Below, piece after piece: positions 18,572-38,863 of a stretch of DNA of 64,000 bases (position 1 is the stretch's first letter; every line of letters begins with the position of its first letter). The notes beneath the pieces were generated by a model that worked only from the letters and a program-made list of their open reading frames with translations, made no database searches and had not been told where the DNA came from. The translations under genes were made by a program, and so were the position numbers. This DNA is from Streptomyces sp. WM6386 (lineage in GTDB: Bacteria > Actinomycetota > Actinomycetes > Streptomycetales > Streptomycetaceae), in assembly GCF_000972385.1 (NCBI RefSeq), contig NZ_JXTE01000048.1, forward strand, positions 1 to 64,000. Reading direction: 5' to 3'.

Positions 18572-18576
18572 TCCAC

Positions 18577-21685: not shown

Positions 21686-22420
21686 ATGTCCATACACATA
21701 GCCGATGTCCAGCAGCACACGCGCGCCATCGAAACCTATTCGGGTCCCGATGATTTCGAACTGGTGCACCCGGTACACGCCGACGCCGTCTGCGGAGTTC
21801 TTCGCAGCGCGTTCGCCGAAGCACCGCACACTCGGGGCTTCACGCAGCTGACCGGACGCTTCGCCGTCGAGACGATGCATCACCCGCTCTCCGATTTCTC
21901 GCGCCTGATCCGCACCGAGATCCTCACCCGCGGACACAGCCTGCGACTGCTGGCGGACCGCGGCGTCATGACCGATCCGCGCTCCCGCGCGCTGCCGGGC
22001 GGCGCCAGGGCGCGCCAGGTGCAACTGCGCGTCACCGACGCCCCGTTGCCCGACCTGGCCCTGCTGGGTACCGAGCTCGGCCTGGTGCGCACCGTGGCGC
22101 CGGACGGCCGGCTGCAGATCCTGCTCGCCCGCCGGGAGGCCACCGCCGCCCTGCTCCAGTTCCAGCAGGTGCTGTGGGGCCACGCCGAGGGCCTGACCTC
22201 GGCGCGCGACGTCCGTGAGCTGCAACTGGACGAGATCCAGCGCCAGGTGTTGCAGATGCTCGGCTCCGGCATGAAGGACGACACGGCGGCCCGGCAGATG
22301 AACGTGTCCGTGCGCACCTACCGCCGCCATGTGGCCGCCATCCTCAAGTCCCTTGACGTCAGCACCCGTTTCGAGGCGGGGATCAGGGCCGCGGAGTACG
22401 GGCTGGTGTCCGCGCCCTGA
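21686..22420 (+). CDS. LuxR-family transcriptional regulator (probable cluster-specific)
   Basis: This 244-residue protein starts at ATG 21686, with a GGGGGG stretch just upstream. The C-terminal helix-turn-helix is of GerE/LuxR type: LDEIQRQVLQMLGSGMKDDTAARQMNVSVRTYRRHVAAILKSLDVSTRFEAGIRAAEYGLV. The N-terminal ~170 residues have no clear receiver motif. They include a stretch (HSLRLLADRGVMTDPRSR ... QILLARREATAALLQFQQVLWGHAEGL) like the helical sensor part of Streptomyces cluster regulators, similar in layout to helix-turn-helix regulators of the TrmB/LuxR type. It is the first gene of the rightward cluster, 186 bases before the carrier protein. It is the best candidate to bind GGCAGSTWGYTGCC. 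Confidence 0.85.
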   Translation: MSIHIADVQQHTRAIETYSGPDDFELVHPVHADAVCGVLRSAFAEAPHTRGFTQLTGRFAVETMHHPLSDFSRLIRTEILTRGHSLRLLADRGVMTDPRSRALPGGARARQVQLRVTDAPLPDLALLGTELGLVRTVAPDGRLQILLARREATAALLQFQQVLWGHAEGLTSARDVRELQLDEIQRQVLQMLGSGMKDDTAARQMNVSVRTYRRHVAAILKSLDVSTRFEAGIRAAEYGLVSAP

Positions 22421-22454
22421 CAGCCGCACCCGGGTCCGCGCCAGGGCCCCGGGT

Positions 22455-22498
22455 GGCAGGTTGCTGCCGACTTTGGCGCCCGGAACCTGTTGCTGCCG
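22455..22498. promoter_or_regulatory. Candidate cluster operator GGCAGGTTGCTGCC plus downstream half-repeat
   Basis: GGCAGGTTGCTGCC (22455-22468) is a near-palindrome. The 9-base string TTGCTGCCG recurs at 22490-22498, so 22461 and 22490 form a direct repeat 29 bases apart. A variant of the same 14-mer, GGCAGCTAGTTGCC, lies at 38943-38956 upstream of the leftward operon. The site lies between the LuxR gene and the first biosynthetic gene. Confidence 0.6.
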
Positions 22499-22606: not shown

Positions 22607-22870
22607 ATGTCCATTGCTTCGGTCACCCATGCCGATGTCGAGGCCGCCGTACTCGCCGTGACGGCAGAGGCCCTGAATGTCCCCGAAGTGCATCTCGACG
22701 ACAATCTTCTGGAACTGGGCGTCGACTCCCTGGTCGCCACCCGGATAGTGGCGGCACTGCGCACCCGCTTCGGCGCGGACATCCCCTTGCTCAACATCTT
22801 CGAATACCCGGAATTGCGCGAATTCGCCATATCGGTCCTGGACGCGATCCAGGACGCACCCCAGGAATGA
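22607..22870 (+). CDS. Stand-alone acyl/peptidyl carrier protein
   Basis: This 87-residue carrier protein starts at ATG 22607. The 4'-phosphopantetheine attachment serine (about residue 41) lies in LELGVDSLVATRIVAAL. The remainder is the usual four-helix bundle (VEAAVLAVTAEALNVPEVHLDDNLL ... IPLLNIFEYPELREFAISVLDAI). The gene stops four bases before the mutase start. Its position beside the mutase and CCR suggests it may carry the dicarboxylic acyl unit, although an aminoacyl role is equally possible. It is typical of type II NRPS/PKS carrier proteins. Confidence 0.9.
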   Translation: MSIASVTHADVEAAVLAVTAEALNVPEVHLDDNLLELGVDSLVATRIVAALRTRFGADIPLLNIFEYPELREFAISVLDAIQDAPQE

Positions 22871-22873
22871 TTC

Positions 22874-24322
22874 ATGGGCATACCGGGCGAGTTCCCCTAC
22901 GACGCCGGACTGCACCCGGGCGGGTACACGACCCGGCTGTGGACCATGCGGCAGCTCGCGGGCCTCTACAGCGCCGAGAGCACCAACAGCCGTTTCCGAT
23001 ACCTGCTGGAGATGGGTGAGACGGGCCTGTCGCTCGCCTTCGACCTGCCGACCCAGCTCGGCCTGGACCCCGACGCCCCCGCCGCCGACGGCGAGGTGGG
23101 ACGCACCGGGGTCTCCGTCGCCACGGTGGACGACCTGAAGACCGTGTTCAAGGAGATCCCGCTCGACCGGGTCTCGGTCTCGTTCACCATCAACGCCACC
23201 GCCCCGATGCTGCTCGCGATGTGGATCGTGGCCGCCGAGGAGTCGGACGTGGACCCCGCCGCCCTGCGCGGCACCCTCCAGAACGAGATGCTCAAGGAGT
23301 TCCTCGCCCGCAAGGCGTACGTGTACGACCTCGACACCAGCGTGCGCTACGCCCTCGACGTCGTCGAGTACTGCATGGAGCACCTGCCCGGCGTCAACCC
23401 CATCTCGGTCTCCGGCGGGCATGCCCGGGAGGCCGGGGCGGACGCCGCGCTGGAGGTCGCCTGTGCGCTGGCGAGCGTGGACGCCTATCTCGCCGGGATG
23501 GTCGAGCGCGGGCACTGTGCGGAGCACGTCGCGTCCCGGTTCAGCTTCATCTTCGGCACCGACATGGAGGTGCTGAAGGAGGCCGCCAAGCTGCGGGTCG
23601 CCCGCCGCCGGTACGCGGAGCGGATGCGGGACCGCTGGGGCGTGACCTCGCCCCGGGCGATGCGGCTGCGCGCACAGGTCAACACCTTCGGCTCGGCCCT
23701 CGCCTACCAGGAACCCCTCAACAACATCGTCCGGGCCACCCTGCAGGCGGTCGCCGCCGTCCTCGGCGGCACCCAGTCGCTGCATGTGTGCAGCTTCGAC
23801 GAGGCCGTGCAGACACCCGGCCCGCTCGGCGCCCGGATCGCCCTGCGCACCCAGCAGATCATCGCCCACGAGACGGACCTGGCCCGCTACGCCGACCCGC
23901 TCGGCGGCTCCCACGTCATCGAGGGCCTCGTCGACGAGCTGGGCAAGGAGGTCGACGACTGGCTGGAGCGCATCGAGGCGCGCGGCGGTGTGGCCGCCTG
24001 TATCCGCAGCGGCTGGCTGGAGGGCCAGATCGAGGAGCTCGCCTACCGCGACCCCGGGCCCACCGTGGGAGTGCTGGAGACCTCGCCCTCGGAGTCCGAG
24101 CGCCAACTGCTCCGGACCGAGGCCCACACCACGACCGGTGGCCGGCGTGACATCGAACGCCCGGACTGCGAACCGGAGTTGACCCGGCTGCGGGACGACG
24201 CCCGGGCCGGCCGCAACGTCCTGCCGGCCCTGATCGAGGCGGTCCGGCGGCGGGCCACCATCGGGCAGCTCTGTACCGCCATGCGACCGGCCGACGACCC
24301 CTCGGCACCGTCCCTTTCCTGA
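22874..24322 (+). CDS. Acyl-CoA mutase large (catalytic) subunit, without B12-binding domain
   Basis: This 482-residue protein is the TIM-barrel subunit of the methylmalonyl-/ethylmalonyl-/isobutyryl-CoA mutase family. Family motifs are RLWTMRQLAG, GLSLAFDLPTQLGLD, QNEMLKEFLARKAYVY, SVSGGHAREAGAD and AYQEPLNNIVRATLQA. The Arg in EFLAR aligns with Arg207 and the Tyr in GGYTT with Tyr89 of methylmalonyl-CoA mutase. Both hold the substrate carboxylate, so a dicarboxylyl-CoA such as ethylmalonyl-CoA is inferred. The usual YH of SGYH is GH here. The cobalamin domain (DxHxxG) is absent and no small subunit is encoded nearby. Coupled with CCR, conversion of ethylmalonyl-CoA to methylsuccinyl-CoA is plausible. 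Confidence 0.88.
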   Translation: MGIPGEFPYDAGLHPGGYTTRLWTMRQLAGLYSAESTNSRFRYLLEMGETGLSLAFDLPTQLGLDPDAPAADGEVGRTGVSVATVDDLKTVFKEIPLDRVSVSFTINATAPMLLAMWIVAAEESDVDPAALRGTLQNEMLKEFLARKAYVYDLDTSVRYALDVVEYCMEHLPGVNPISVSGGHAREAGADAALEVACALASVDAYLAGMVERGHCAEHVASRFSFIFGTDMEVLKEAAKLRVARRRYAERMRDRWGVTSPRAMRLRAQVNTFGSALAYQEPLNNIVRATLQAVAAVLGGTQSLHVCSFDEAVQTPGPLGARIALRTQQIIAHETDLARYADPLGGSHVIEGLVDELGKEVDDWLERIEARGGVAACIRSGWLEGQIEELAYRDPGPTVGVLETSPSESERQLLRTEAHTTTGGRRDIERPDCEPELTRLRDDARAGRNVLPALIEAVRRRATIGQLCTAMRPADDPSAPSLS

Positions 24323-24351
24323 CACTCCCCCACCCCAGCGGAGTCGCACTG

Positions 24352-25695
24352 ATGTCTCAACTGATCGAGGCGGTCCGGCACGGCGCGGACCCGGACGAAC
24401 TACTGGCCTGCCCCGTGCCGGAGTCCTATCGCGCGGTCTTCCTGCGCCGCGAGGACGAGGACCTGTTCAAGGGGATCGACAGCCGCGACAAGGACGTACG
24501 ACGCACCCTGCACCTCGGCGAGGTGCCCATGCCGGAGCTGGCGCCGGACGAGGTGCTGGTCGCGGTGATGGCGTCCGCCGTCAACTACAACACCGTCTGG
24601 TCCGCGCTGTACGAGCCGATGTCGACCTTCGGGTTCCTGGCCCGGTTCGCCCGCGAGGGCCACTGGGAGGCGCGGCACGACCGCGACTACCAGGTCGTCG
24701 GGTCCGACGCGGCCGGTTTGGTGGTCCGGGTGGGCAGTGCCGTACGGCACTGGACCCCCGGTGACCGGGTGGTGGTGAACCCGCCGTACATCGACGAGCA
24801 GGATCCCGTCGCCCAGCGGGACGGGATGCTGACCACGGGCATGCTCGCCTGGGGGTTCGAGACCAACTTCGGCGCGTTCGGCGACTTCGCCGTGGCCCGC
24901 GCCTCGCAGCTCGTGCCGATGCCGCCACATCTGTCGTGGGAGGAGGCCGCCTGCAACACGCTGTGCCTCGGCACCTCCTACCGCATGCTGATCGGTGACC
25001 ACGGCGCCCGGATCAGGGCCGGGGACATCGTGCTGGTCTGGGGCGCGGCGGGCGGGCTCGGCAGCTACGCCGTGCAGCTGGTGCGGCAGGCCGGCGGGAT
25101 CGCCGTCGGGGTCGTCGGCTCGCGGGACAAGGCCGATCTGGTGGACCGGCTGGGCTGCCATGTCGTCGTCGACCGCAACGAGGTGGGGCTCGGCGACGAC
25201 GAGGACGACGCCTCCGCGTGGCGGGCGCTGGGCTCGGTCATCCGCAAGGAGCTCGGCGAGGACCCGCATGTCGCCTTCGAGCACGTCGGCAGGTCCACCT
25301 TCGAGACCTCGGTGAACGTGGTGCGGCGCGGCGGTGTGGTGGTGACCTGCGGGTCCAGCAGCGGATACCGGCACGTCTACGACAACCGCTATCTGTGGAT
25401 GAAACTCAAGCGGGTCATCGGCAGCCACGGCGCCAACATCGACGAGGCGTGGGAGGCGAACCGGCTGCTGCGCCTCGGCATGGTCATGCCCGCCCTCTCC
25501 CGGGTCTTCCCGCTGGCCCAGGCCGCGGAGGCCACCCGCTCGGTACAGCTCAACGCCCACGAGGGCAAGGTGGGCCTGCTGAACCTGGCGACCGCGGAGG
25601 GCCAGGGCGTCCAGGACCCGGGACTGCGGGAGCGCATCGGCGAGCCCCGACTGCGACTCTTCCGCGACCACGCCGGACAGGCGGCCCGCCCGTGA
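24352..25695 (+). CDS. ccr: Crotonyl-CoA carboxylase/reductase
   Basis: This 447-residue medium-chain reductase reductively carboxylates crotonyl-CoA (or a longer enoyl-CoA) to ethylmalonyl-CoA, using NADPH and CO2. The CCR hallmarks are present: the Asn in VNYNTVW, the Phe-Glu pair in GFETNFGAFGDFA and the His in IGSHGAN. All four correspond to known CO2-binding residues, so carboxylation and not just reduction is expected. The cofactor loop is VWGAAGGLGSYAVQLV. The length is normal. It lies 29 bases after the mutase gene, and its stop overlaps the start of a micro-ORF (GTGA). The C-terminal tail RLRLFRDHAGQ is duplicated downstream. Confidence 0.93.
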   Translation: MSQLIEAVRHGADPDELLACPVPESYRAVFLRREDEDLFKGIDSRDKDVRRTLHLGEVPMPELAPDEVLVAVMASAVNYNTVWSALYEPMSTFGFLARFAREGHWEARHDRDYQVVGSDAAGLVVRVGSAVRHWTPGDRVVVNPPYIDEQDPVAQRDGMLTTGMLAWGFETNFGAFGDFAVARASQLVPMPPHLSWEEAACNTLCLGTSYRMLIGDHGARIRAGDIVLVWGAAGGLGSYAVQLVRQAGGIAVGVVGSRDKADLVDRLGCHVVVDRNEVGLGDDEDDASAWRALGSVIRKELGEDPHVAFEHVGRSTFETSVNVVRRGGVVVTCGSSSGYRHVYDNRYLWMKLKRVIGSHGANIDEAWEANRLLRLGMVMPALSRVFPLAQAAEATRSVQLNAHEGKVGLLNLATAEGQGVQDPGLRERIGEPRLRLFRDHAGQAARP

Positions 25696-25835: not shown

Positions 25836-25972
25836 CCACCCCTCACGACAGCGCCCCCACTGCCTTCCGCCATCGGCCGACCGGGACGCCGGGAGCGACC
25901 CCCGTCGCCGCCACGGACGAGAACCGGCCACGGCCCTTCCGCGACCACGCCCGGCAGGTGGGGCGGACATGA
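25832..25972 (+). CDS. Chimeric micro-ORF 2 (second copy)
   Basis: This 46-residue frame starts at ATG overlapping the stop of micro-ORF 1. It reads TTPHDSAPTAFRHRPTGTPGAT near the start and RPRPFRDHARQVGRT at the end. It is close to micro-ORF 1 along its length and to the A-domain N terminus at its beginning. Its stop overlaps the A-domain start codon (ATGA at 25969). Such micro-ORFs are easily missed. Their similarity to both neighbours indicates duplication, and a separate peptide function is speculative. Confidence 0.55.
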   Translation: MTTPHDSAPTAFRHRPTGTPGATPVAATDENRPRPFRDHARQVGRT

Positions 25973-27831
25973 CCACTCCGTACCTCAGCATCCCCGAGGC
26001 ATTCCGCCGTCAGGTCGCCCGGGCGCCGGGGGCGGTTGCCGTCGCCGGGGTGGGTGAGGAGCTGACCTACGGTGAGCTGGACCGTCGCTCGGACGCGTGG
26101 GCGGACGCGCTCGTCGCGCGCGGGGTGGTGCCCGGTGACCGGGTGCTGGTGTGCCTGGAGCGGTCGGTATCGCTGGTCGTCGGCCTGCTCGCGATCCTCA
26201 AGGCGTCGGCGGCGTATCTCCCGGTGGATCTCGGGGAGGCGCCGGCCCGGCTGGCGGGCATCGTCGCGGACGCGGAGGTCCGGCTGGCGCTGTGCGACGA
26301 GGTGGGGGCCGGCGTGCTGGCGGCGCATGAGGTGCCGGTGCTGCTGGTCGGCCGGTCCGGCGGGACAACGGCGGGTGCCACGACCGGTGCCGCGTTGCCG
26401 ACGCCCGCCGACAGGCCCATATCGCCCGCCGGACGGCCCGGCGCGGGCAGGACCGACGCCGAGGCACCCACCCCTCCCGGCACGACCGATACCGAGACAC
26501 CCTCGCCTCCCCGCGGGCCCGCGCGGCCCGCCGGACAGCCCTCCCAGGGCACGACCGACGCCGACGCACCCACCCATGCCGAGACGCCCTCGCCTCCCCG
26601 CAGGCCCGTGCCGCTCGCCGGACAGCCCTCCCAGGGCACGACCGACGCCGACGCACCCACCCCTCCCGGCACGACCCATGCCGAGACACCCTCGCCTCCC
26701 CGCGGGCCCGTGCCGCTCGACGGACAGCCCTCCGAGGGCGCCCCGCGGAGCGGGCCCGAAGACGTCGCCTGCGTCATGTACACCTCCGGCTCCACCGGCC
26801 GCCCGAAGGGCGTGCTCGTGCCGCACCGGGCCGTGCTGAACCTTGTTCACGAGCCGAACTACGTCACCCTGGACGGCCATGACCGGCTCCTGCAGCTCGC
26901 CCCGGTCGCCTTCGACGCGGCGACCTTCGAGATCTGGGGCGCGCTGCTGAACGGCGCCCGGCTGGAGGTGGCGCCGGCCGGGCCGCTCGGCGCGGAAGGG
27001 CTGGGCGGGCTGCTGCGGGAGCGGGGCATCACGGTTCTGTGGCTGACCGCGGCGCTGTTCCACCGTCAGATCGACTTCGACGCCGGGTCGTTGAGCTCGC
27101 TGCGCGTGCTGCTGGCGGGCGGTGACGTGCTGTCCGTGGAACATGTCCGACGGCTCCGCGCGGCCGCCCCGGGCCTGCGGGTCGTCAATGGCTACGGCCC
27201 GACCGAGGCCACCACCTTCTCGCTGTGCCACCGGATCGCGCCGGACGAGGAGTTCCCCCGCTCGGTCCCCATCGGCGTCCCCGTCCAGGGCACCGAGGCC
27301 CAACTGCGGGACGACTCCGGGGCGGTCGTGCCCGAGGGCGCCGAGGGCGAACTGTGGATCGCGGGGGCGGGCGTGGGCCTCGGCTACTGGCGCCGCCCCG
27401 ACCTCACCGCCGAGCGGTTCGTCACCGATGCCGACGGCCGCACCTGGTACCGCACCGGCGACCTGGCCCGCCGACGATCCGACGGCGTCCACGAGTTCCT
27501 CGGCCGGATCGACGGCCAGGTCAAGCTGCTCGGCCACCGCGTGGAACCCGGCGAGATCGAGAACCTGCTCGCGGGGTGCCCGCCCATCGGCCAGGCCGCG
27601 GTGGGCGTACGCACCAACCTCGTGGGCGACCCCAAGCTGGTCGCCTGGGTCACCCTCACCGGCCCGCTGGACCGCCGCGCACTGCGCGCCCGACTCCGGC
27701 GCGAACTGCCCGAGTACATGGTGCCGACGCTCTTCGCGGCCGTCGACGCGCTGCCCGTGACCGCCAACGGCAAGGTCGACCGCAACGCCCTGCCGGCCCC
27801 CGACTGGCGACGTAAGGAGAACTATGTCTGA
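25969..27831 (+). CDS. Stand-alone NRPS adenylation domain, valine-like code, with repeat linker
   Basis: This 620-residue protein activates an amino acid with ATP and loads it on a carrier protein in trans. Core motifs are LTYGELD (A1), LLAILKASAAYLPVDL (A2), YTSGSTGRPKG (A3, about 271), NGYGPTEATT (A5), GELWIAG (A6), YRTGDLA (A7), FLGRIDGQVKLLGHRVEPGEIE (A8) and TANGKVDR (A10). Specificity residues read from PheA positions are D-A-F-W-L-G-G-T-F, one conservative change from the known valine code DAFWIGGTF. Residues about 124-263, between A2 and A3, are a Pro/Thr-rich insertion built from in-frame tandem repeats. That makes it longer than usual stand-alone A domains. The stop overlaps the next carrier gene (ATGTCTGA). 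Confidence 0.9.
   Translation: MTTPYLSIPEAFRRQVARAPGAVAVAGVGEELTYGELDRRSDAWADALVARGVVPGDRVLVCLERSVSLVVGLLAILKASAAYLPVDLGEAPARLAGIVADAEVRLALCDEVGAGVLAAHEVPVLLVGRSGGTTAGATTGAALPTPADRPISPAGRPGAGRTDAEAPTPPGTTDTETPSPPRGPARPAGQPSQGTTDADAPTHAETPSPPRRPVPLAGQPSQGTTDADAPTPPGTTHAETPSPPRGPVPLDGQPSEGAPRSGPEDVACVMYTSGSTGRPKGVLVPHRAVLNLVHEPNYVTLDGHDRLLQLAPVAFDAATFEIWGALLNGARLEVAPAGPLGAEGLGGLLRERGITVLWLTAALFHRQIDFDAGSLSSLRVLLAGGDVLSVEHVRRLRAAAPGLRVVNGYGPTEATTFSLCHRIAPDEEFPRSVPIGVPVQGTEAQLRDDSGAVVPEGAEGELWIAGAGVGLGYWRRPDLTAERFVTDADGRTWYRTGDLARRRSDGVHEFLGRIDGQVKLLGHRVEPGEIENLLAGCPPIGQAAVGVRTNLVGDPKLVAWVTLTGPLDRRALRARLRRELPEYMVPTLFAAVDALPVTANGKVDRNALPAPDWRRKENYV
26460..26745 (+). repeat. In-frame tandem repeat inside the A-domain gene
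   Basis: About three copies of an 87- to 102-base unit begin at GAGAC near 26494, 26581 and 26683. The units encode variants of ETPSPPRGPVPLAGQ followed by PSQGTTDADAPT. Both periods are multiples of three, so copy-number changes keep the frame. The tract is C-rich and codes for a flexible linker. Confidence 0.88.
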
Positions 27832-28072
27832 GGTGCGCGACCGGCTCGCGGACACCGTCACCGCGGTCTGGACCGAGGTGCTCGGCATCGACGGGATCGG
27901 GCCCGACGACGACTTCTTCGACCTGGGCGGCGACTCCCTGGTCGCCACCCGGCTCACCGCCCTGCTGGAACAGCGGCTCGGCGTCGCGATCGACGTACTG
28001 ACGGTGTTCGACCACCCCACGATCGGGGAGCTCGTCACGGAACTGGAGAAGGCACATGGCGACCGGCTCTGA
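27824..28072 (+). CDS. Stand-alone peptidyl carrier protein
   Basis: This 82-residue carrier protein has the phosphopantetheine serine at about residue 38 in DDDFFDLGGDSLVATRLTALL. This is the canonical PCP motif. It overlaps the end of the A-domain gene by eight bases and the start of the MFS gene by 17 bases, implying tight coupled translation. It is the likely partner of the valine-type adenylation protein. The tethered amino acid could then be a substrate for the AurF-like oxygenase or be passed to the condensation domain of the 29524 protein. Confidence 0.92.
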   Translation: MSEVRDRLADTVTAVWTEVLGIDGIGPDDDFFDLGGDSLVATRLTALLEQRLGVAIDVLTVFDHPTIGELVTELEKAHGDRL

Positions 28073-29333
28073 CTCCGCCGAGAGCGGAGCGCCGGCGATC
28101 GCTCCGAACAAGCGGAACGTACGGCTGTGGCTGGCCGGGACATCCGTCTCGCTGTTCGGCGATGCCGCGCTGTGGATCGCGCTCGGCATCTGGATGAAGG
28201 ACCTGACGGATTCCAACGGTGCGGCCGGACTGGCCTTCGCCGCCTATGTGCTGCCCCGCCTCGGCGCCCCCTTCCTCGGTCTGGTCGTGGACCGCTACCG
28301 GCGCCGGCCACTGATCGCGCTGATCAACTTCGCGCTGGCCGGCTGGGTGTGCCTGGCCTTCCTGGTCCACGACAAGGACCAGGCGTGGCTGCTGTACCTG
28401 GTGCTGTTCGGCATCGGTCTGGGCGTCGGCATGCACAACGCGGCGGGCAGCGCGCTGCTCACCCGCCTGGTGCCGGCCGAGGAACTGGGCCCCACCAACG
28501 CGCTGATGCGCACGCTCCAGGAGGGCGGCATGCTCGTCGCGCCCGCCGTCGGCGCGGCGCTGTACACCTGGGTCGGGCCGCGTGCCGTGGCCGGGCTGGA
28601 AGTCGTGACGTTCCTGGCGTGCGCCCTGTGCGTGCTGGCGGTGAAGGTCGAGGAGCCCGAGCCGCAGCGGCCGGACGGCAAGCTGGCCCAGGAACTCCTG
28701 GCCGGGGTGCGGCACTTGGCACGCACCCCGCAGCTGCGCGCGGTCTCCGTGGCCATGGGGCTCGGCCTGCTGGGCTTCGGTTTCATCGAGACGCTGATCT
28801 ACGCCGTCGCCGACGAGGGTCTGCATCGCAGCGCGTCGTTCGTCGGGGTGCTCACCGTCGTCAAGGGCGTCGGCTCGGTGCTGGGCGGCCTCGCCGGGGT
28901 GCGGGTGCTCAAGCGGATGGGGCCGGGCCGGGAGGCGATGCTGACCGTGTTCGGGCTCGGCACGATGGGCCTGGGCTGCGCCCTGCTCGTCCTGCCCGGC
29001 GTGGTGGCGGCGCTGGCGGGTGTGTTCGTGATCGGCCTGGGCATTCCCGGCGCGGTCGTCGGCCTGTACACCTCCGTGCAGCGCAACTCCCCCGACCGGC
29101 TCCAGGGCCGGGTCGCCTCGGCGGCGAGCATGCTCGCGACCGCGCCCCAGGTGCTGGCCGTGTTCACCAGCGCCGCGCTGGTGGCGAGCGTCGACTTCCG
29201 GGTGCTGCTGGGCGTGATGACCGTCCTGGTCCTGGGCGGCTCGGGCTACCTCGCCCTGCGGATGCGCGGCTTCCCCGCCGTGCCGCGGCCCACCACCGCG
29301 CAGCCGCACTCCGCGCCCGCCGCCGCGGAGTGA
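28056..29333 (+). CDS. MFS transporter, probable product exporter
   Basis: This 425-residue major facilitator has about twelve hydrophobic segments. It includes the loop 2-3 type motif GLVVDRYRRRPLIALIN and the symmetric central region after VKVEEPEPQRPDGKLAQELLAGVRHL, which joins two six-helix halves. It belongs to the MFS group often annotated as drug efflux (MFS_3-like). The gene overlaps the upstream carrier gene by 17 bases. Inside a biosynthetic operon, export of the product or self-resistance is the natural inference. The Ala/Pro-rich C terminus is not part of the fold. Confidence 0.87.
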   Translation: MATGSDSAESGAPAIAPNKRNVRLWLAGTSVSLFGDAALWIALGIWMKDLTDSNGAAGLAFAAYVLPRLGAPFLGLVVDRYRRRPLIALINFALAGWVCLAFLVHDKDQAWLLYLVLFGIGLGVGMHNAAGSALLTRLVPAEELGPTNALMRTLQEGGMLVAPAVGAALYTWVGPRAVAGLEVVTFLACALCVLAVKVEEPEPQRPDGKLAQELLAGVRHLARTPQLRAVSVAMGLGLLGFGFIETLIYAVADEGLHRSASFVGVLTVVKGVGSVLGGLAGVRVLKRMGPGREAMLTVFGLGTMGLGCALLVLPGVVAALAGVFVIGLGIPGAVVGLYTSVQRNSPDRLQGRVASAASMLATAPQVLAVFTSAALVASVDFRVLLGVMTVLVLGGSGYLALRMRGFPAVPRPTTAQPHSAPAAAE

Positions 29334-29523
29334 CGTACCGCCGCGCCAGGCCCTGTTCGGTGGCCGCCGGGGTCCGGCCGGGGGTCACGCGGCCACCGTG
29401 AACGGCACGCCCCGGCGGCCGACCCGAGCGAAGCCGGGTGACGACGACGCGCCGGACCCCGACGCCCGCGTGACCCCCGGCCGGACCCAGCGGCCGGACC
29501 CGCACTTTCCGAAGGAGATCCTC

Positions 29524-32355: not shown

Positions 32356-33278
32356 CGGAGCCCCGCGTCGCCGCCGACTGGTACGAGAGCGCCGGCGTGC
32401 GCGGCGGCCCGCGCCGGATGCTGCGGGAGGATCGCGAGGCCGGGCTGAAGGTGTTCCCCGAGCATCTGGTCCCGCATCTGCACCACGAGGGACTGGCCGG
32501 CCTGGGCGCGGACACCCGGCAGGCGCTGCTGACCCAGCACTTCTACCAGTACATGCTGTTCACCTCGCATCTGGAGACCAAGGTGGTCAACCGGGGGGCG
32601 GCGATGGTGGCGCACGGCGAGACCGACGTCGACCTCGGGCCCGGTGCCCGCCTGGACGCGTTCAAGATCTACAGCGACGAGGCCTATCACGCCCTGTTCA
32701 GCCTGGACGTGGTGCAACAGGTGGAGAAGACCACGGCGGTGCCGGTGCTGCCGTACGACTTCGCGCCGCGCATGGCCCGCCTGGACCGTACGGGCCACGA
32801 ATTCCTGCCGGACCACGGCTCGCTGGCCCACATCCTCCAGGTCGTCGCCTTCGAGACCGTGGTGACACGGATGCTGGCGCGGATCCCCCGCGACGAGACG
32901 GTGTTCCGGGTGGTGCGCGAGGTCGTGGGCGACCACGTCCGCGACGAGGTGCACCACCACGCCTACTTCACCCGCTACTTCAAGGAACTGTGGGCGAGCC
33001 TGTCCCCGGCGACGCGCGTGAAGGTGGCCTGCGCCATGCCGCACTTCGTCGACGACTGTCTGCGCCCCGACCTCGACCCGGTGCGGTCGGCCCTGCACAC
33101 GGCCGGGGTGAGCGCCGACCTGGCCGAGGAGGTGCTGCGCGACTGCTATCGCGAGGAGGTCCTCGCGGCCGGCGTACGGGACGCGGGCCGGCACACGCTG
33201 GGGCTGTGCGAGTCGGTGGGCGCGTTCGACATACCCGAGGCCCGCGAGCAGCTGCATCTGCTGGGGCTGACGGACTGA
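32352..33278 (+). CDS. AurF-like diiron N-oxygenase
   Basis: This 308-residue helical diiron oxygenase has the full ligand pattern of the AurF (p-aminobenzoate N-oxygenase) family. The ligands are Glu75 in HLETKVV, Glu110/His113 in DEAYHALF, Glu168 in AFETVVT, and His195, Glu199 and His202 in GDHVRDEVHHHAYF. Relatives oxidise amines to hydroxylamine, nitroso or nitro groups (AurF, CmlI) or act on valine-derived substrates (PvfB/HamC type). It starts in an ATGA overlap with the NRPS gene and ends the rightward operon. With a valine-type A domain upstream, N-oxidation of a valine-derived amine is the leading hypothesis. Hydroxylation or desaturation is possible. Confidence 0.87.
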   Translation: MTEPRVAADWYESAGVRGGPRRMLREDREAGLKVFPEHLVPHLHHEGLAGLGADTRQALLTQHFYQYMLFTSHLETKVVNRGAAMVAHGETDVDLGPGARLDAFKIYSDEAYHALFSLDVVQQVEKTTAVPVLPYDFAPRMARLDRTGHEFLPDHGSLAHILQVVAFETVVTRMLARIPRDETVFRVVREVVGDHVRDEVHHHAYFTRYFKELWASLSPATRVKVACAMPHFVDDCLRPDLDPVRSALHTAGVSADLAEEVLRDCYREEVLAAGVRDAGRHTLGLCESVGAFDIPEAREQLHLLGLTD

Positions 33279-33283
33279 CGGGT

Positions 33284-33310
33284 CCCGGGCGGCGGCGCGG
33301 GCCGCCCGGG
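33284..33310. terminator. Bidirectional hairpin between the two cluster operons
   Basis: CCCGGGCGGC (33284-33293) and GCCGCCCGGG (33301-33310) are perfect complements with a 7-base loop. They lie between the convergent oxygenase and C-domain genes. Confidence 0.85.
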
Positions 33311-33343
33311 GCCCATTTCCTCTCGTACGTCATGGCCGGTACG

Positions 33344-35407
33344 TCACTTCTCCAGCGCCGCCGCGAGCGCGACACCGTCGACCCGCCCGGACGCCAGCCG
33401 GGGCAGCCGGTCGAGAACGTGCACGGTGGGCGGCGGCCAGCCCGCGGGCCAGGCGCGGCGCACGGCACGGCGCCACACACGGGGGTCGGGGTCCGTGCCC
33501 GCGGTCGGCACCACGGCGGCCCGGACCCGCAGCGCCCCGCCGTCACCGGTCACGACCGCGGCTTCCCGGACCCCGGGCAGCGCGGCGAGCACCGTCTCGG
33601 CCTCGGCACGGTCCAGGGTGCGCCCGACCCACTGCCGCACCTGGTCCGCGGTGCCCAGCAGCCGGACCCGGCCGTCCGCGTCGATCCAGGCACGGAACCC
33701 ACCGGGACGCGGGTCGTCGCCGACGCCCAGCAGCCCCGCGATCCCCCGGGGCAGGGTGCGCCCCTCGGGGTCGGCCACCCGCAGCGGGCGGCCGGGCGCC
33801 GGGTCGGTGAGCCAGATGCCGTACGGGTCCTGCGCCCGCCAGTCGCACACGCCGAGCCGCCCGAGGGCGGGGTCGACGACGTCCAGCAGGACCCGGCCGC
33901 CCGCACTTCGGTAAGCGGCGACCGCGGGCGTCGGCAGGAACTGCTCGACGGGACAGTGCACGAGCGGGGTGGCCGTCGGGCCGGTCGCCGCGGCGGCGGC
34001 GAGTTCTGGGAACGACCCGCGCGCGGTGGGCGGCAGGGTGTCGGTGTCCCCGTCCGGCACGGGGTCCTCGGCGGGACGTACATGGGGTTCGGCGAAGGTG
34101 TGCAGCGAGGCGTCGGGCCGCTCCGTGAGGGCGCCGAGCAGACGGGTGAAGTCGGCCGTGAGGCGCCGCGCGCCGGCCTGGTCGAGGGCGGTCGGGGTGA
34201 AGTCGAGCCGTCCGTAGGCGGCGTCGCCCTCGCGGCGCAGTTGCAGGATGAGGTCGAAGGACCGCGTCGAGTTGGGCGCGAAGAAGTCCCAGTCGAACTC
34301 CAGACCCGCCACCTCGCCCAGGTCGCGCGCGACCGACGGATAGGACACGCCGATCCGGTCGAAGGCGCCCTGACCGACGTCCACGCCGTGACGTCGGCGC
34401 AGTTCGCGCAGGACCCAGCTGAACGGGACCCGGCGATGGCGGTGGACAAGGCCGAGCGCCTCCCCCGCGGCCGCCAGCAGGTCCCGGAACGTCGTCTCGG
34501 GTGTCACCTCCATCAGACACGGCACGACATTGACCTGGAGGCCGATGTGGTCCCGGGTCTCGGGCACGCTGGTGTCCACCGGGATGCCCAGGACGAAACG
34601 GCGGTTGCCGTACCCGTGCAGGACCGCCGCGGCACAGGCCACCAGGCCGGTGAAGAAGCTGACGCCCGTCCGCCGGGTGAGCTCGCGCAGCCGGGCGCAG
34701 TGCGCGGCGGGCAGGTCGAAACGGGGCGTCGGCCGCACCGTGGCGTCCTCGTCGGTGCCGGCGGAGCGGGGCAGGACCAGACCGGGCAGGTCGAGCAGAC
34801 CGGCGGTCAGCCAGTACCGGACGACGTCGTCCAGCTCCTCGTCGATCGCCGGGTGCTCGGGCAGGGCGTGATTCTCGCGCGAGGGCCGGGGGCCGGTGGC
34901 GAGGGCGCGCAGGAACTGGCGGGCGAAGACGAACTTGGAGCGCCCGTCGAAGGCGATGTGGTGGACGCCGACGACCAGGGTGTGCCGGTCGGGTCCGTGC
35001 GTCAGCAGGGAGAAGGTGATCGGCGAGCGGGTGGTCAGGTCCCAGGGCCCGACCCGGTGCGCCCGGTACCAGTCCCGGGCCACGGATAGCTCCTGCCCCG
35101 CTGCGGCGGCGAGCTCCAACTCCTCGAACTGGAGCACATCCGGCGCCGGACGGATCGCCATCCGCGCCTCGCCGCCCTCGGTGACCAGCCCCCGGAGCTG
35201 CGGATGATCCTCACACACGTCCAGGCACGCCGCCCGCACCCGCTCCGCGCTCACCCCACCCCTGATGAGCACCGACAGAAACCCACCGTTGATGGACCGC
35301 GGATGCAACTGCTGCTCCAGCCACATCGCCTCCTGCGCGGGAGACAACCGCACGAGCACCGGCGCATCGACCGACCGCCCGTCCGCCACCCCCGCCGTCT
35401 CAGCCAC
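33344..35407 (-). CDS. NRPS protein: condensation domain fused to degenerate A subdomain
   Basis: This 687-residue protein starts at GTG 35407, overlapping the stop of the upstream A-domain gene by eight bases. An ATG at 35431 is the alternative start. The condensation domain opens with VRLSPAQEAMWLEQQLHPRS and has the intact catalytic motif HHIAFDG. It is followed by GIPVDTSVPETRDHIGLQVNVVP. The last ~200 residues contain only a partial adenylation fold (ADPEGRTLPRG ... WIDADGRVRLLGTADQVRQWVGRTLDRAEAETVLAALPGVREAAVV). The A10-like string is SGRVDG, so the lysine is lost. There is no carrier domain. It must act on trans-loaded carriers and may join the second adenylation protein's residue. 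Confidence 0.87.
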   Translation of the reverse strand: MAETAGVADGRSVDAPVLVRLSPAQEAMWLEQQLHPRSINGGFLSVLIRGGVSAERVRAACLDVCEDHPQLRGLVTEGGEARMAIRPAPDVLQFEELELAAAAGQELSVARDWYRAHRVGPWDLTTRSPITFSLLTHGPDRHTLVVGVHHIAFDGRSKFVFARQFLRALATGPRPSRENHALPEHPAIDEELDDVVRYWLTAGLLDLPGLVLPRSAGTDEDATVRPTPRFDLPAAHCARLRELTRRTGVSFFTGLVACAAAVLHGYGNRRFVLGIPVDTSVPETRDHIGLQVNVVPCLMEVTPETTFRDLLAAAGEALGLVHRHRRVPFSWVLRELRRRHGVDVGQGAFDRIGVSYPSVARDLGEVAGLEFDWDFFAPNSTRSFDLILQLRREGDAAYGRLDFTPTALDQAGARRLTADFTRLLGALTERPDASLHTFAEPHVRPAEDPVPDGDTDTLPPTARGSFPELAAAAATGPTATPLVHCPVEQFLPTPAVAAYRSAGGRVLLDVVDPALGRLGVCDWRAQDPYGIWLTDPAPGRPLRVADPEGRTLPRGIAGLLGVGDDPRPGGFRAWIDADGRVRLLGTADQVRQWVGRTLDRAEAETVLAALPGVREAAVVTGDGGALRVRAAVVPTAGTDPDPRVWRRAVRRAWPAGWPPPTVHVLDRLPRLASGRVDGVALAAALEK

Positions 35408-37025
35408 GCGTTCCCCCCGCCCCCACCGCATCCGGCAGTTCGCGGCGGGCGAGCTTGCCGTTGGCCGTCAGGGGGAGTTCCGGTACGAGGACGAAGCGGG
35501 CCGGGATCATGTAGTCGGGCAGGGCGGCCGCACAGGCTGTGCGCAACGCGCCGACGTCGGGGGCCCGGTCCTCGCCGGCCGGGACGACGTAGGCCTGCAG
35601 CGCGGTCGTGCGGTCCGTGCCGAGGCCGACGACGGCGACCCGGCGCACCCCGGGGACCCGGCTCAGCACGGCCTCGACCTCACCCGGCTCCACGCGGTAC
35701 CCGCGGACCTTGAGCTGGTCGTCGATACGGCCGACGAAGTGCAGCAGGCCGTCCTCCAGGCGCACCAGATCGCCGGTGCGGTAGCCGCGCCGGGTGCCGC
35801 CGTCGACGTGCGGCAGCTCCTGGAACCGTTCCTCGGTCAGCCGCTCGTCGCCGAGGTACCCCGTGGCCAGGCAGCGGCCGGTGACGACGAGTTCGGCCTC
35901 CTCGCCCTCGGCGAAGGGGCCGAGGACCCCGTCCCGCAGCCGCAGCAGCCCGGCACCGGCCACGCAGCCGCCGAGCGGCGGATGCGCGGGCCACCGGGCC
36001 GGGTCCTGGGGCAGCCGGTACTCGGTGACGACATGCGTCTCGCTGGGCCCGTACTGGTTGACCAGGGTCGCGTCCAGGCCCGCGAACAGCGCCCGCACCT
36101 CGTCGTTGACGACGAGCCGCTCGCCCGCGACGACGACCTCCCGCAGCGCGGACAGCCGATGCCCGGTCACCGGCACCGCGACGGCCAGCGCGTGCAGGGA
36201 CGCCACCGGCAGGAAGGCGCGGGCGATGTCGTACCGCTCCAGCACGCCGGCGAGCAGGAACGGGTCGCGGCGGGTGATGTCGTCGACCACGACCAGCGGC
36301 GCGCCCGCGACCCAGGCCGCCACCAGCTCCTGGAACCCGACGTCGAACCCGACGGACGCGGCATGCAGCGTGCGCGGCACCTCGCCCCGCTCCCACCCGT
36401 CCAGATGCCAGCCGGCCAGCCCCTCGAGAACCACCGGCGGAACCGCCACACACTTGGGCGTCCCCGTGGAACCGGAGGTGGCGACGACGTAGGCGACAGG
36501 ACCGCTCCGATCGACCGCGGACCCCCCGCTCGCGCCCGAACCAGTCCGACCGAGCCCCTCGCCCGCCCCCGGCACCGAGCCCGCGCGACCGGGCCCCGCG
36601 TCCGTGCCCGAGCCCGGGCCGGCCCCCTCGGCCGCCCGTTGCGCGGTCACGGCCGACGTCCCGACCCCGAGCGTCGTCACATCCGGACCGAGGTCCATCG
36701 ATGCCGGGGCGTCGGTCAGGGCCAGTCGGACGTCCGCCGTGTCGATGATCCGGTCCAGGCGCTCGGCCGGCAGCCCCGGGTCCAGGGCGACGACCGCGGC
36801 CCCCGCCCGCCAGATGCCGAGCACGGCCGCGCACCGCCACCAGCCGCGCACCGCCAGCACCCCGACGTACGCGCCGGGCGCCACGCCCCGTTCGGCGAGC
36901 GCGGCCGCGATCCGGGCGGAGGCCGCGTCCAGCTGGGCGTATGTGTACTCGGTGTCCTCGTGCACCACCGCGACCCGGTCCGCGTACTTCTCGCACGCGG
37001 CGACCAGCAGCTCGGTGAGCGGCAT
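35400..37025 (-). CDS. Stand-alone NRPS adenylation domain, proline-like code
   Basis: This 541-residue adenylation protein has YTYAQLD (A1), ATSGSTGTPKC (A3), NQYGPSETH (A5), AELVVTG (A6), YRTGDLVRL (A7), FVGRIDDQLKVRGYRVEPGEVE (A8) and TANGKLARREL (A10, lysine present). Residues at PheA specificity positions read D-V-Q-F-V-A-Q-V-V, close to known proline codes (DVQFIAHVV-like), with Gln for His at 322. Proline or a related cyclic imino acid is tentative. A Gly/Ser/Ala-rich insertion (about 120-170) lies between A2 and A3, where the valine-type protein has its repeat linker. The start overlaps the asnB-type stop by one base (TGATG). Confidence 0.88.
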   Translation of the reverse strand: MPLTELLVAACEKYADRVAVVHEDTEYTYAQLDAASARIAAALAERGVAPGAYVGVLAVRGWWRCAAVLGIWRAGAAVVALDPGLPAERLDRIIDTADVRLALTDAPASMDLGPDVTTLGVGTSAVTAQRAAEGAGPGSGTDAGPGRAGSVPGAGEGLGRTGSGASGGSAVDRSGPVAYVVATSGSTGTPKCVAVPPVVLEGLAGWHLDGWERGEVPRTLHAASVGFDVGFQELVAAWVAGAPLVVVDDITRRDPFLLAGVLERYDIARAFLPVASLHALAVAVPVTGHRLSALREVVVAGERLVVNDEVRALFAGLDATLVNQYGPSETHVVTEYRLPQDPARWPAHPPLGGCVAGAGLLRLRDGVLGPFAEGEEAELVVTGRCLATGYLGDERLTEERFQELPHVDGGTRRGYRTGDLVRLEDGLLHFVGRIDDQLKVRGYRVEPGEVEAVLSRVPGVRRVAVVGLGTDRTTALQAYVVPAGEDRAPDVGALRTACAAALPDYMIPARFVLVPELPLTANGKLARRELPDAVGAGGTRG

Positions 37026-38863
37026 CAGAGCTCGACCCGTACGCCGGACTCGAACCAGTGGTCCAGCTGTACGGCCGCCTCGATGCTCATCCGGGTCACC
37101 CCTGCCCGTAGCCCGTAAGTGGGGTCGGTCAGCACGGACTCGACGCGCGCGGGGTCGAGCAGGTCGTTCACCCGGGCACCGGGCCGCTCGGTGATGTCCT
37201 TCAGCTGGGCGCGCAGCGCGGTGCGGTAGGCGGGGTCCTGGACCGTCGGGTACGGCGACTTCTTCCGCTGGAGGACCGCCTCCGGCAGCAGGTCACGGAC
37301 CGCGGCCCGCAGCAGGCTCTTCTCCCGCCCGTCGGCGACCTTCATCTCCCACGGCACGTTGTAGACGTACTCGGCGAGTTCGTGGTCGCAGAACGGCACC
37401 CGGCCCTCGATGGACGCGGCCATCCCGAGGCGGTCCTTGCGGTCGAGGATGACCCGCAGATAGCGGGTCATGTTGAGGTACGTGATCTCCCGCATCCGGC
37501 GTTCGTGCGCGGACTCCTCACCGCTCAGCGGAACCTCGGCGACGGCCTCCTCGTAGCGGGCCTGGGTGTACCCGGCGAAGTCGAGCTCGTGGTACAGCTC
37601 CCGGTCCAGGAGTCCGGACAGGAACTCCATCTGGTGCGAGGCGCCGAGCCAGGGGAAGGTCCTGGACTTCACGTAGAACGGGTCGTGGAACCACATGTAG
37701 CCGCCGAACAGCTCGTCCGAGCCGTCCCCGGTGAGGGTGACCGTGCAGAAGCGGCGGACCTCCTGGGAGAGCCGGTACAGCGACACGTACATGTCGAGTC
37801 CGGCGACGGGCCGCTCATGGGCGCGCACCACGGCCGCCTGGGCCTCGCGGTCGGCCAGGTGGTCCCGGTCGACGAGCAGCTCGCGGTGCTCACTGCCCAG
37901 ATGCGCGGCCATCTTGGCGACGTAGGGGGCGTCCGGGGAGTCGTGCACCTCGTCGGGGCGGAAGTTCTCCAGATGGTAGGCGAACTCCATGGAGAACGTC
38001 TGGAGCCGGTCGCCGCCGCCGAGGGAGCGGTTGACCAGGGCGCAGACCGCGCTGGAGTCCAGGCCGCCGGAGAGCATCGAGGAGATCGGCACGTCCGAGA
38101 TCACCTGGCGCCGGACGATGTCCTCCAGCATCTCGCGCACGGTCCGTTCCGTGGTGGCGAGGTCGTCGGTGTGCTCGCGCGGGGTGAAGTTCCAGTAGCG
38201 GGCGCGGCGGACGCCGGCGCGCGAGTAGCGGACGACCTCGCCCGGGATCACCTCCCGGGTGTGCCGGAACACCGACAGGCCCGGGGTGGGGGTGAAGGAC
38301 AGCGCCTCCAGCAGTCCGGTCCGGTCCACGACCGGCTCGACCAGGCCGGTGGCGAACAGCGCCTTGGGTTCGGAGCCGAAGGCGAAGCCGTCCGGGGTCT
38401 CGGCGTAGAAGAGTGGGTAGATGCCGAACCGGTCGCGGATCAGGACGAGTTCCTCGGTCCGTACGTCCCACACGGCGAAGGCGAACATGCCGCGCAGCCG
38501 TTCGGCGCAGGCCGGGCCCCACTCCTGGTAGGCGCGCAGCACCACCTCGGTGTCGCTGCGGTCGCGGAACTCATGGCCCCGGCCGCGCAGTTCCTCGCGC
38601 AGCTCGGCGAAGTTGAAGACCTCGCCGGTGTAGTTGAGCACGACGGTCTCGCGACCCGCCGCGTCGGTGGCGACGGCGGGCTGGTGTCCGCCCGACAGGT
38701 CGACCACGGCGAGCCTGCGGGGCACGAACAGGGCTCTCGGAGAGGACCACTCGCTGACTTCGTCCGGACCGCGCAGGGCGAGCGCGCCACGCATCGACTC
38801 GACCAGGTCGGAGCGGTGCGCGAGGTCCTGGGTGAAGGAGACAAGGCCGACTATGCCGCACAT
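37025..38863 (-). CDS. Asparagine synthetase-type glutamine-dependent amidotransferase
   Basis: This 612-residue AsnB-family enzyme starts at ATG 38863, giving the catalytic N-terminal Cys in MCGIVGLVSF. The glutaminase domain (1-~210) shows RGPDEVSEW, RRLAVVDLSGGHQP and NYTGEVFNFAELREEL. The synthetase domain has the P-loop SMLSGGLDSSAVCAL and TGDGSDELFGGYMW with DRKDRLGMAASIEGRVPFCDHELAEY. Both active sites look intact. It makes an amide from a carboxylate by adenylation and glutamine-derived ammonia. First gene of the leftward cluster operon, it may amidate a dicarboxylic building block or product rather than aspartate. Housekeeping asparagine synthesis cannot be excluded. Confidence 0.9.
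   Translation of the reverse strand: MCGIVGLVSFTQDLAHRSDLVESMRGALALRGPDEVSEWSSPRALFVPRRLAVVDLSGGHQPAVATDAAGRETVVLNYTGEVFNFAELREELRGRGHEFRDRSDTEVVLRAYQEWGPACAERLRGMFAFAVWDVRTEELVLIRDRFGIYPLFYAETPDGFAFGSEPKALFATGLVEPVVDRTGLLEALSFTPTPGLSVFRHTREVIPGEVVRYSRAGVRRARYWNFTPREHTDDLATTERTVREMLEDIVRRQVISDVPISSMLSGGLDSSAVCALVNRSLGGGDRLQTFSMEFAYHLENFRPDEVHDSPDAPYVAKMAAHLGSEHRELLVDRDHLADREAQAAVVRAHERPVAGLDMYVSLYRLSQEVRRFCTVTLTGDGSDELFGGYMWFHDPFYVKSRTFPWLGASHQMEFLSGLLDRELYHELDFAGYTQARYEEAVAEVPLSGEESAHERRMREITYLNMTRYLRVILDRKDRLGMAASIEGRVPFCDHELAEYVYNVPWEMKVADGREKSLLRAAVRDLLPEAVLQRKKSPYPTVQDPAYRTALRAQLKDITERPGARVNDLLDPARVESVLTDPTYGLRAGVTRMSIEAAVQLDHWFESGVRVEL

What the first reader, a model, noticed from the sequence alone, without database searches (positions are those of the whole stretch)
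21686..38863. Unrecognised dispersed NRPS cluster combining CCR, acyl-CoA mutase, AurF-like oxygenase and AsnB
The sequence shows two operons with two trans A domains (valine-like and proline-like codes), three carrier domains, two C domains, one TE, a CCR with CO2-binding residues, an acyl-CoA mutase, an AurF-type diiron enzyme and an AsnB-type amidotransferase. There is no ketosynthase. Known family chemistry suggests crotonyl-CoA to ethylmalonyl-CoA, then a methylsuccinyl-type unit, N-oxidation of a valine-derived amine, amide formation and TE release. I know no described cluster with this set. The product structure is inference.
Basis: partly seen in the sequence, partly recalled or inferred. 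Interest (0 to 1): 0.88.

Follow-up and report, generated by a model that had tools for sequence, protein, structure and literature searches.

The report
Propioxatin-type metallopeptidase inhibitor gene cluster
These Streptomyces genes look like the assembly line for a small zinc-grabbing peptide that blocks metal-dependent peptidases, a relative of actinonin and a good candidate for propioxatin, a natural product from 1986 whose genes I did not find described in the papers I could search.

Summary
The genes reported are present: two free-standing A domains (Val and Pro codes), three carriers, two C domains, one TE, CCR, acyl-CoA mutase, AurF-like oxygenase and AsnB. But the set is not undescribed: CCR + mutase + AsnB + AurF homologue + dispersed NRPS is the signature of the actinonin and matlystatin clusters (Nat Commun 2017, MIBiG BGC0001442/3), whose products carry an N-hydroxy-2-alkylsuccinamyl, metal-chelating warhead. 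The proposed chemistry needs correcting too: the CCR resembles the octenoyl-CoA enzyme CinF rather than crotonyl-CoA enzymes, and AurF/AsnB most likely build the hydroxamate rather than oxidise a valine amine. New is the architecture: in-module A domains eroded to stubs, Val and Pro loaded in trans, an extra carrier, and hydrolytic (TE) instead of reductive release. Warhead + Pro + Val + free acid is the composition of propioxatins A/B; my searches found no published cluster for them. Residue order (Pro-Val, propioxatin; or Val-Pro, an actinonin acid) and chain length are open. Relatives occur in S. canus, S. spiralis, Kitasatospora and, rearranged, Rhizocola. New variant of a known kind.

The parts
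21626..22420 (+). LuxR-type regulator (GerE helix-turn-helix at C-terminus), probable cluster regulator
   Evidence: PF00196 E=1.7e-05; 97% identical copy beside the cluster in S. canus; no match in the stretches read around the S. spiralis and G178 clusters
22607..22870 (+). discrete carrier protein 'ACP0' (Ser in LGVDSL), probable carrier of Pro or of the warhead
22874..24322 (+). adenosylcobalamin acyl-CoA mutase, large subunit, 2-hydroxyisobutyryl-CoA-mutase type
   Evidence: best PDB match 4r3u; 62-66% to lydiamycin, matlystatin and S. cacaoi mutases, 44% or less to the other mutases of the same genome
24352..25695 (+). enoyl-CoA carboxylase/reductase, CinF-like (medium-chain) type
25969..27831 (+). 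free-standing adenylation protein A1, Val code DAFWLGGTFK
26446..26700 (+). tandem-repeat Pro/Thr-rich insert inside A1, much shorter in S. canus and strain S3
27824..28072 (+). free-standing peptidyl carrier protein (GGDSL)
28056..29333 (+). MFS exporter
29398..32355 (+). C2-(A_C remnant)-PCP-TE terminal module protein; start more likely at 29524 by comparison with the 943-aa S. canus protein
31027..31245 (+). remnant of a lost A domain (A_C subdomain only)
   Evidence: PF13193, residues 544-616; fuller copies in relatives
32352..33278 (+). AurF-like diiron N-oxygenase
   Evidence: the seven metal-ligand positions are invariant in 27 aligned sequences
33280..33314 (+). terminator-like hairpin between the two convergent operons
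   Evidence: pattern match only
33344..35431 (-). C1-(A_C remnant) protein, the presumed warhead-accepting C domain; HHIAFDG motif intact
33386..33604 (-). remnant of a lost A domain (A_C subdomain only) in the C1 protein
   Evidence: PF13193, residues 610-682
35400..37025 (-). free-standing adenylation protein A2, Pro code DVQFVAQVVK
37025..38863 (-). AsnB-type glutamine-dependent amidotransferase (starts Met-Cys-Gly)

Best explanation
The cluster makes an N-hydroxy-2-alkylsuccinamyl dipeptide acid of the propioxatin type: warhead-Pro-Val-OH, a hydroxamate inhibitor of zinc metallopeptidases. Proposed steps: (1) the CCR reductively carboxylates a medium-chain 2-enoyl-CoA (C6 to C8) to an alkylmalonyl-CoA; (2) the mutase, with a cobalamin small subunit and an epimerase encoded elsewhere in the genome, rearranges it to 2-alkylsuccinyl-CoA; (3) AsnB amidates the free carboxylate and the AurF-like diiron enzyme N-hydroxylates the amide, or AurF makes a hydroxylated donor and AsnB transfers it; (4) A2 loads Pro on a discrete carrier (probably ACP0) and C1 joins it to the warhead; (5) A1 loads Val on the carrier of the terminal module, whose own A domain is lost, and C2 extends; (6) the TE hydrolyses the product to a free acid and the MFS protein exports it. 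Shown here: gene identities, catalytic residues, A codes, erosion of the A domains, conservation of the set. Inferred by homology: steps 1-3 and 6. Inferred from gene co-occurrence in a few clusters, and open: the order Pro-Val and which A serves which carrier.
For: Same core gene set as actinonin and matlystatin. The mutase is 62-66% identical to mutases of the lydiamycin and matlystatin producers and of S. cacaoi, but at most 44% to other mutases of its own genome. CCR is CinF-like. AurF ligands and AsnB Cys are intact. The Val code is identical in 5 of the 6 related A1 proteins read (L011-L014 and G178; L027 differs), and 12 of the 16 listed close relatives of A2 have the identical Pro code, the other 4 one or two changes. 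TE Ser (GWSLGG) and C-domain His are kept. Propioxatins A/B are alpha-propyl/alpha-isobutyl succinic hydroxamate-L-Pro-L-Val from Kitasatospora, and three Kitasatospora strains carry relatives of both the AurF and the C-PCP-TE proteins. Order: in the five clusters with A2 where I looked for carriers (window, S. canus, S. spiralis, strain S3, G178) ACP0 is present, the two related clusters without A2 (Rhizocola, Archangium MAG) lack it as far as read, and the one Kitasatospora cluster read has kept ACP0 but not the PCP beside A1 (A2 of strain S3). A2 belongs to a clade of free-standing A proteins, away from the in-module Pro A domain of the S. cacaoi actinonin-like cluster. A mutase small subunit (68% to the protein at the MatQ position) and an epimerase (68% to the S. 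cacaoi ActC-like protein) exist elsewhere in the genome.
Against: No product was measured. C1 groups, weakly (91/83), with the actinonin-like C1, whose proposed acceptor is Val, away from the group of clusters with Pip codes. A1 lies beside a carrier, and in the Archangium MAG the A1 homologue plus carrier would serve residue 1 because the terminal module keeps its own A domain. Both favour Val-Pro. No epimerase match lies on the window's contig; actinonin, matlystatin and lydiamycin have one in the cluster. Neighbours of free-standing A2 relatives showed no clear ACP0-like partner. The characterised or proposed CCR relatives use octenoyl-CoA (pentyl side chain), whereas propioxatins have propyl or isobutyl.
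Confidence: 0.6

Rival explanations
1. Same warhead pathway, but order Val then Pro: A1 and its neighbouring PCP supply residue 1, A2 loads the terminal module, TE releases an actinonin skeleton ending in a proline carboxylic acid instead of prolinol.
For: A1 and PCP genes overlap; C1 groups weakly with the actinonin-like C1; in the Archangium MAG the terminal module has its own A domain, so the A1 homologue would serve residue 1.
Against: In the one Kitasatospora cluster read, the PCP beside A1 is absent while ACP0 is kept. A2 and ACP0 co-occur. A2 is not kin of the in-module Pro domain of the actinonin-like cluster. The window C2 is not placed with the actinonin-like C2, though on weak branches. 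No such natural product is known to me (recall).
Confidence: 0.28
2. A hydroxamate inhibitor of the same class with another or further residue, or a longer or branched chain, not identical to any described compound.
For: Three carriers for two A domains; CinF-like CCR points to C8 while propioxatins need C6 or branched enoyl-CoA; no measurement of chain length.
Against: Only two C domains and two intact A domains, so two residues fit best.
Confidence: 0.1
3. One reading: ethylmalonyl-CoA to methylsuccinyl, with AurF oxidising a Val-derived amine.
For: CCR and mutase families in general also do the ethylmalonyl reactions.
Against: CCR is CinF-like; no decarboxylase family was hit by the window proteins scanned with Pfam (some small called ORFs were not scanned and some proteins hit no family); sister clusters assign AurF and AsnB to hydroxamate formation.
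Confidence: 0.02

Closest known systems
Actinonin cluster (act, BGC0001442, Streptomyces sp. ATCC 14903); read here through an act-like cluster in S. cacaoi NBRC 12748 (L057, L127, L128)
   Same: CCR, mutase large subunit, AsnB, AurF homologue, C1-A* protein, Val- and Pro-type residues, mutase small subunit outside the cluster
   Different: act has an in-cluster epimerase and a terminal reductase giving prolinol (the S. cacaoi protein is C-A-PCP-reductase); here a TE, Val and Pro loaded by two free-standing A proteins, extra carriers, and a C2 not placed with the act-like one
Matlystatin cluster (mat, BGC0001443, Actinomadura atramentaria DSM 43919; L125, L126)
   Same: CCR, mutase, AsnB, AurF homologue, C1-A*, free-standing Pro-like (Pip) A protein and discrete PCP
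   Different: mat has piperazic acid genes, a PKS module and an in-cluster mutase small subunit; I found none of these in the window
Lydiamycin cluster (lyd)
   Same: related mutase (62%) and a CCR
   Different: lyd lacks AsnB and N-oxygenase and makes a carboxylate warhead on a macrocyclic pentapeptide
Propioxatins A and B (Kitasatospora setae products)
   Same: predicted composition: alkylsuccinyl hydroxamate + Pro + Val + free acid (the free acid is recalled for propioxatin)
   Different: no cluster for them found in my searches; order and chain length here unproven

Membership tests
N-hydroxy-2-alkylsuccinamyl (HPS) hydroxamate clusters (actinonin/matlystatin) | CCR of the alkylmalonyl-forming type | tested here: met
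   TIGR01751 over cut-off; CinF-like
[quoted passage not shown]
   best PDB 4r3u; 62-66% to HPS mutases, at most 44% to others of its own genome
N-hydroxy-2-alkylsuccinamyl (HPS) hydroxamate clusters (actinonin/matlystatin) | AsnB-like amidotransferase with N-terminal Cys | tested here: met
   51-52% to the S. cacaoi, matlystatin and Micromonospora proteins
N-hydroxy-2-alkylsuccinamyl (HPS) hydroxamate clusters (actinonin/matlystatin) | AurF-type N-oxygenase with all diiron ligands | tested here: met
N-hydroxy-2-alkylsuccinamyl (HPS) hydroxamate clusters (actinonin/matlystatin) | ethylmalonyl-CoA-type epimerase available | tested here: inconclusive
   none on the window's contig; one TIGR03081 match over cut-off elsewhere in the genome (C848), 68% to the S. 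cacaoi ActC-like protein
N-hydroxy-2-alkylsuccinamyl (HPS) hydroxamate clusters (actinonin/matlystatin) | cobalamin small subunit available | tested here: met
   170-aa protein elsewhere in the genome, 68% to the protein at the MatQ position of A. atramentaria
Actinonin (as product) | terminal reductase domain releasing prolinol | tested here: not met
   TE instead
Propioxatin (as product) | Pro and Val as the two residues | tested here: met
   A-domain codes; prediction only
Propioxatin (as product) | hydrolytic release to a free acid | tested here: met
   type I TE with GWSLGG; prediction only
Propioxatin (as product) | order Pro then Val | tested here: inconclusive
   for; partly against
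Propioxatin (as product) | propyl or isobutyl side chain | not testable with these tools
   CCR pocket only suggests longer than crotonyl

The most novel reading that the evidence does not exclude
This is a third, separate lineage of the hydroxamate class. Its assembly line has lost both in-module A domains and runs wholly on free-standing loading proteins. A discrete prolyl unit (A2 + ACP0) was gained together, which turned an ancestral warhead-Val-X line into the propioxatin order. A bolder version: ACP0, encoded directly before the mutase and CCR, holds the alkylsuccinyl unit while AsnB and AurF build the hydroxamate on the carrier rather than on CoA.
Probability: 0.3. Interest if true: 0.65.

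Novelty: new variant of a known kind. Interest (0 to 1): 0.5.

Why it matters
Propioxatins are among the strongest known inhibitors of dipeptidyl peptidase III (Ki 5.6 and 13 nM, described in 1986). My searches of openly licensed papers found no gene cluster assigned to them (and the listed rows of 67). If the assignment holds, an orphan product gets its genes, the hydroxamate class gains a free-acid branch next to actinonin and matlystatin, and stepwise loss of A domains within an assembly line can be studied in living relatives.

Tried and rejected
Rejected: 'no described cluster'; ethylmalonyl route; two carriers only, which was my own first Pfam reading, corrected when the 22607-22870 carrier was found; my first pick of an antisense ORF (32208-33257) in place of the AurF gene; a peptide deformylase as self-resistance gene in the cluster (four in the genome, none on the window's contig).

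Led nowhere: the A code of the Archangium terminal module (DVNERGVICK) is not readable to me, so it does not settle the order. Codes behind C2 relatives (90 of the 120 listed proteins looked at) gave no consistent residue, partly because the automatic extraction failed for several long proteins. Neighbours of four loci with free-standing A2 relatives showed no ACP0-like partner that would fix the A2-ACP0 pairing: weak carrier matches at L159, L161 and L162 (E 2e-08 or worse), none at L160 apart from a carrier domain inside an A-PCP-TE protein; at L162 my ORF picker did not even pick the A2 relative. L024, the AurF hit in A. atramentaria, is a paralogue outside the matlystatin cluster; the cluster itself was reached by the mutase search. 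The C2 motif and identities at first seemed to favour the actinonin order, but the tree does not place C2 with the actinonin-like C2.

Limits: actinonin itself was compared only through an act-like cluster in S. cacaoi, recognised by gene content, a C-A(Pro)-PCP-reductase protein and a Thr-like code on its lone A protein as the paper states for ActH; KY906183 was not read. G178 is taken as Kitasatospora sp. MMS16-BH015 only because its contig length (8963858) equals that listed for P0021. In the C tree the unlabelled rows were C2-like hits, so C1 was not tested against unrelated C domains. The genome draws overlap.
Full report
What is there. The window is one stretch of a 9.2 Mb draft genome (G000, contig C423); close relatives of its genes lie in Streptomyces. 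Gene calls by codon-position GC and Pfam/NCBIfam scans give two convergent operons. Plus strand: LuxR regulator, discrete carrier ACP0, acyl-CoA mutase, CCR, A1, PCP, MFS exporter, C2-(A_C)-PCP-TE, AurF-like oxygenase. Minus strand: AsnB, A2, C1-(A_C). The operons are separated by 65 bases that hold a terminator-like hairpin, and several genes overlap.

Residue-level checks. Specificity codes, obtained by alignment to the window's A1 with code positions recalled from the GrsA scheme, are DAFWLGGTFK for A1 and DVQFVAQVVK for A2. I recall DAFWIGGTFK and DVQFIAHVVK as textbook Val and Pro codes. The same pipeline gives DVQFVAHVVK for the Pro module of an actinonin-like cluster in S. cacaoi, DVQFNAHMVK for the matlystatin Pip domain, and DFWNIGMVFK for the S. 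cacaoi lone A protein, in line with the published note that ActH is predicted to activate Thr. A repeat in a larger alignment gave the same nine letters except the last one of the S. cacaoi lone A protein. In the AurF-like protein E75, E110, H113, E168, H195, E199 and H202 are invariant in 27 aligned sequences (26 of the 44 search hits plus the window) and align with the AurF structure 3chh (that these are the metal ligands is recalled). AsnB begins Met-Cys-Gly. C1 keeps HHIAFDG, C2 has HHLIIDE, and the TE has GWSLGG.

What it is. The combination of CCR, mutase, AsnB and AurF homologue with dispersed NRPS genes is the published signature of actinonin and matlystatin biosynthesis (PMC5719088; outline, the sections on the two clusters, the model and data availability read). 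There an enoyl-CoA is proposed to be carboxylated by the CCR, epimerised, rearranged by the mutase to 2-pentylsuccinyl-CoA, amidated by AsnB and N-hydroxylated by the AurF homologue. Lydiamycin uses the same first half (PMC12130866; outline, two sections and passages read). The window mutase is 62.4% identical to the lydiamycin one, against 42.7% for the next plasmid hit, and 65-69% to the matching genes in A. atramentaria, S. cacaoi, Micromonospora sp. C31 and an Archangium MAG. The other mutases of its own genome are 44% or less. In genomes drawn by the tool a mutase of this class (E below 1e-150) was found in 3 of 394 of the family, 1 of 391 of the order and 1 of 396 of the phylum, own genome included each time and the draws overlapping. 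So it is rare.

What differs from actinonin and matlystatin. (a) Release is by a TE; the actinonin-like protein of S. cacaoi is C-A-PCP-reductase. The product should therefore be a free acid. (b) Both residues are loaded by free-standing A proteins. The terminal module shows a series of decay: a full A domain in the Archangium MAG (L027), a partial one in P0071, only the C-terminal subdomain in the window, a C-terminal stub below Pfam's cut-off in Kitasatospora P0068 and P0070, and none detected in Kitasatospora P0074 and Rhizocola. (c) A third carrier. (d) No epimerase or mutase small subunit on the window's contig. The genome has a small subunit 68% identical to the protein at the MatQ position and an epimerase 68% identical to the S. 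cacaoi ActC-like protein. The actinonin producer also keeps its small subunit elsewhere. (e) A tree of 42 C domains places all nine C1 domains of this class in one group (100/100). It puts the window-type C2 domains in their own group of eight (100/100), not with the actinonin/matlystatin C2 domains, but the branches that keep the two apart are weak (87/60 and 84/87). The window type looks like a separate lineage of the class; its own C2 group is firm, its distance from the other C2 domains less so.

Relatives. The AurF-guided scan kept 79 loci. All 79 match the AurF query; 7 of 79 also match the mutase or CCR (L011-L014, L027, L039, L057), and 54 of 79 match nothing else of the cluster. L012 (S. 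canus V4I20) holds the set in the same order, L013 (S. spiralis JCM 3302) the same without the LuxR gene, and L011 (Streptomyces sp. S3(2020)) holds it up to a contig end. L014 (Rhizocola hellebori) and L027 (Archangium MAG) hold rearranged versions. A Kitasatospora genome (G178) holds the set except the PCP beside A1 and the LuxR gene, with other genes between AurF and C1. Protein searches also list relatives of AurF and of C-PCP-TE in Kitasatospora sp. McL0602 and NPDC002227.

Product. [quoted passage not shown] a reference title records propioxatin A from Actinosynnema sp. SI-23 (PMC7570522, passages read). The window cluster predicts that composition. Searches for 'propioxatin' (6 papers), for at least three of four terms with K. 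setae and gene cluster (7 papers), for actinonin with gene cluster terms (6 papers) and for related names (301 papers, 40 listed) showed no paper that assigns it a cluster, judged from listings and the papers opened; only openly licensed papers are held.

Order of residues. For Pro-Val: ACP0 is present in the five clusters with A2 where I looked (window, S. canus, S. spiralis, strain S3, G178) and absent from the two related clusters without A2 (Rhizocola, Archangium MAG), as far as their loci reach. G178 lacks the PCP next to A1 but has ACP0. Rhizocola shows only the Val A protein in the stretches read, so A1 there probably serves the TE module. A2 sits in a clade of free-standing A proteins (16 rows, SH-aLRT 100), not with the actinonin-like Pro domain; the matlystatin-type Pip domains fall in the same wider set of 21 rows (97). 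For Val-Pro: C1 groups weakly with the actinonin-like C1 (91/83), A1 lies beside a PCP, and the Archangium MAG arrangement implies A1 for residue 1. Relatives of A2 elsewhere did not show an ACP0-like partner. These are few clusters, and the gene-content argument is suggestive only. I put about 0.6 on Pro-Val and 0.3 on Val-Pro.

Side chain. The CCR scores 555 bits with CinF (4a0s) and 453 or less with crotonyl-CoA enzymes. At CinF Ala163 and Gly362 the window enzyme has Ala and Gly; the crotonyl enzyme shown (6owe) has Ile and Phe. That these positions set chain length is recalled, not read (searches did not supply it).

Verdict. A real, intact-looking cluster of a known class, with a distinct architecture and a plausible assignment to an orphan natural product. 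New variant of a known kind. Class membership is about 0.9 likely; Pro + Val + free acid about 0.75; the full propioxatin-order statement about 0.6.

Noticed in passing
L014 (Rhizocola hellebori), 1918-13617: Related cluster with CCR (73%), Val A protein, PCP, MFS, AsnB, C2-PCP-TE, AurF, C1 and a P450, but no mutase of the class (best in the genome 41%) and no Pro A protein in the stretches read. It may make an alkylmalonyl rather than alkylsuccinyl hydroxamate.
   Followed up: partly
L027 (MAG named Archangium sp.), 3859-18808: Related cluster in a genome labelled Myxococcota, with an intact A domain in the terminal module of unreadable code. It could be horizontal transfer or mis-binning.
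   Followed up: no
window 26446-26700 and about 36547-36610: Tandem-repeat Pro/Thr-rich and Gly/Ser-rich inserts inside both free-standing A proteins between their core motifs; the A1 insert is much shorter in S. canus and strain S3.
   Followed up: partly
window 25659-26034: A 137-base unit repeated 2.7 times (75% matches) spans the end of the CCR gene, the 273-base gap and the start of A1, as if the gap arose by local duplication.
   Followed up: no
P0073 and P0075: Proteins with a C2-like domain followed by a second C domain, A and PCP. P0075 lies on a contig of the same length (26131) as an AurF relative (P0038), suggesting a longer peptide variant.
   Followed up: partly
window 20006-20917: Second aldehyde dehydrogenase next to the cluster matches only profile positions 5-232 of 461, so it looks truncated. 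S. spiralis also has an aldehyde dehydrogenase ORF just before its cluster (L013:23-1054), which may mark a shared insertion site.
   Followed up: no
   Followed up: no
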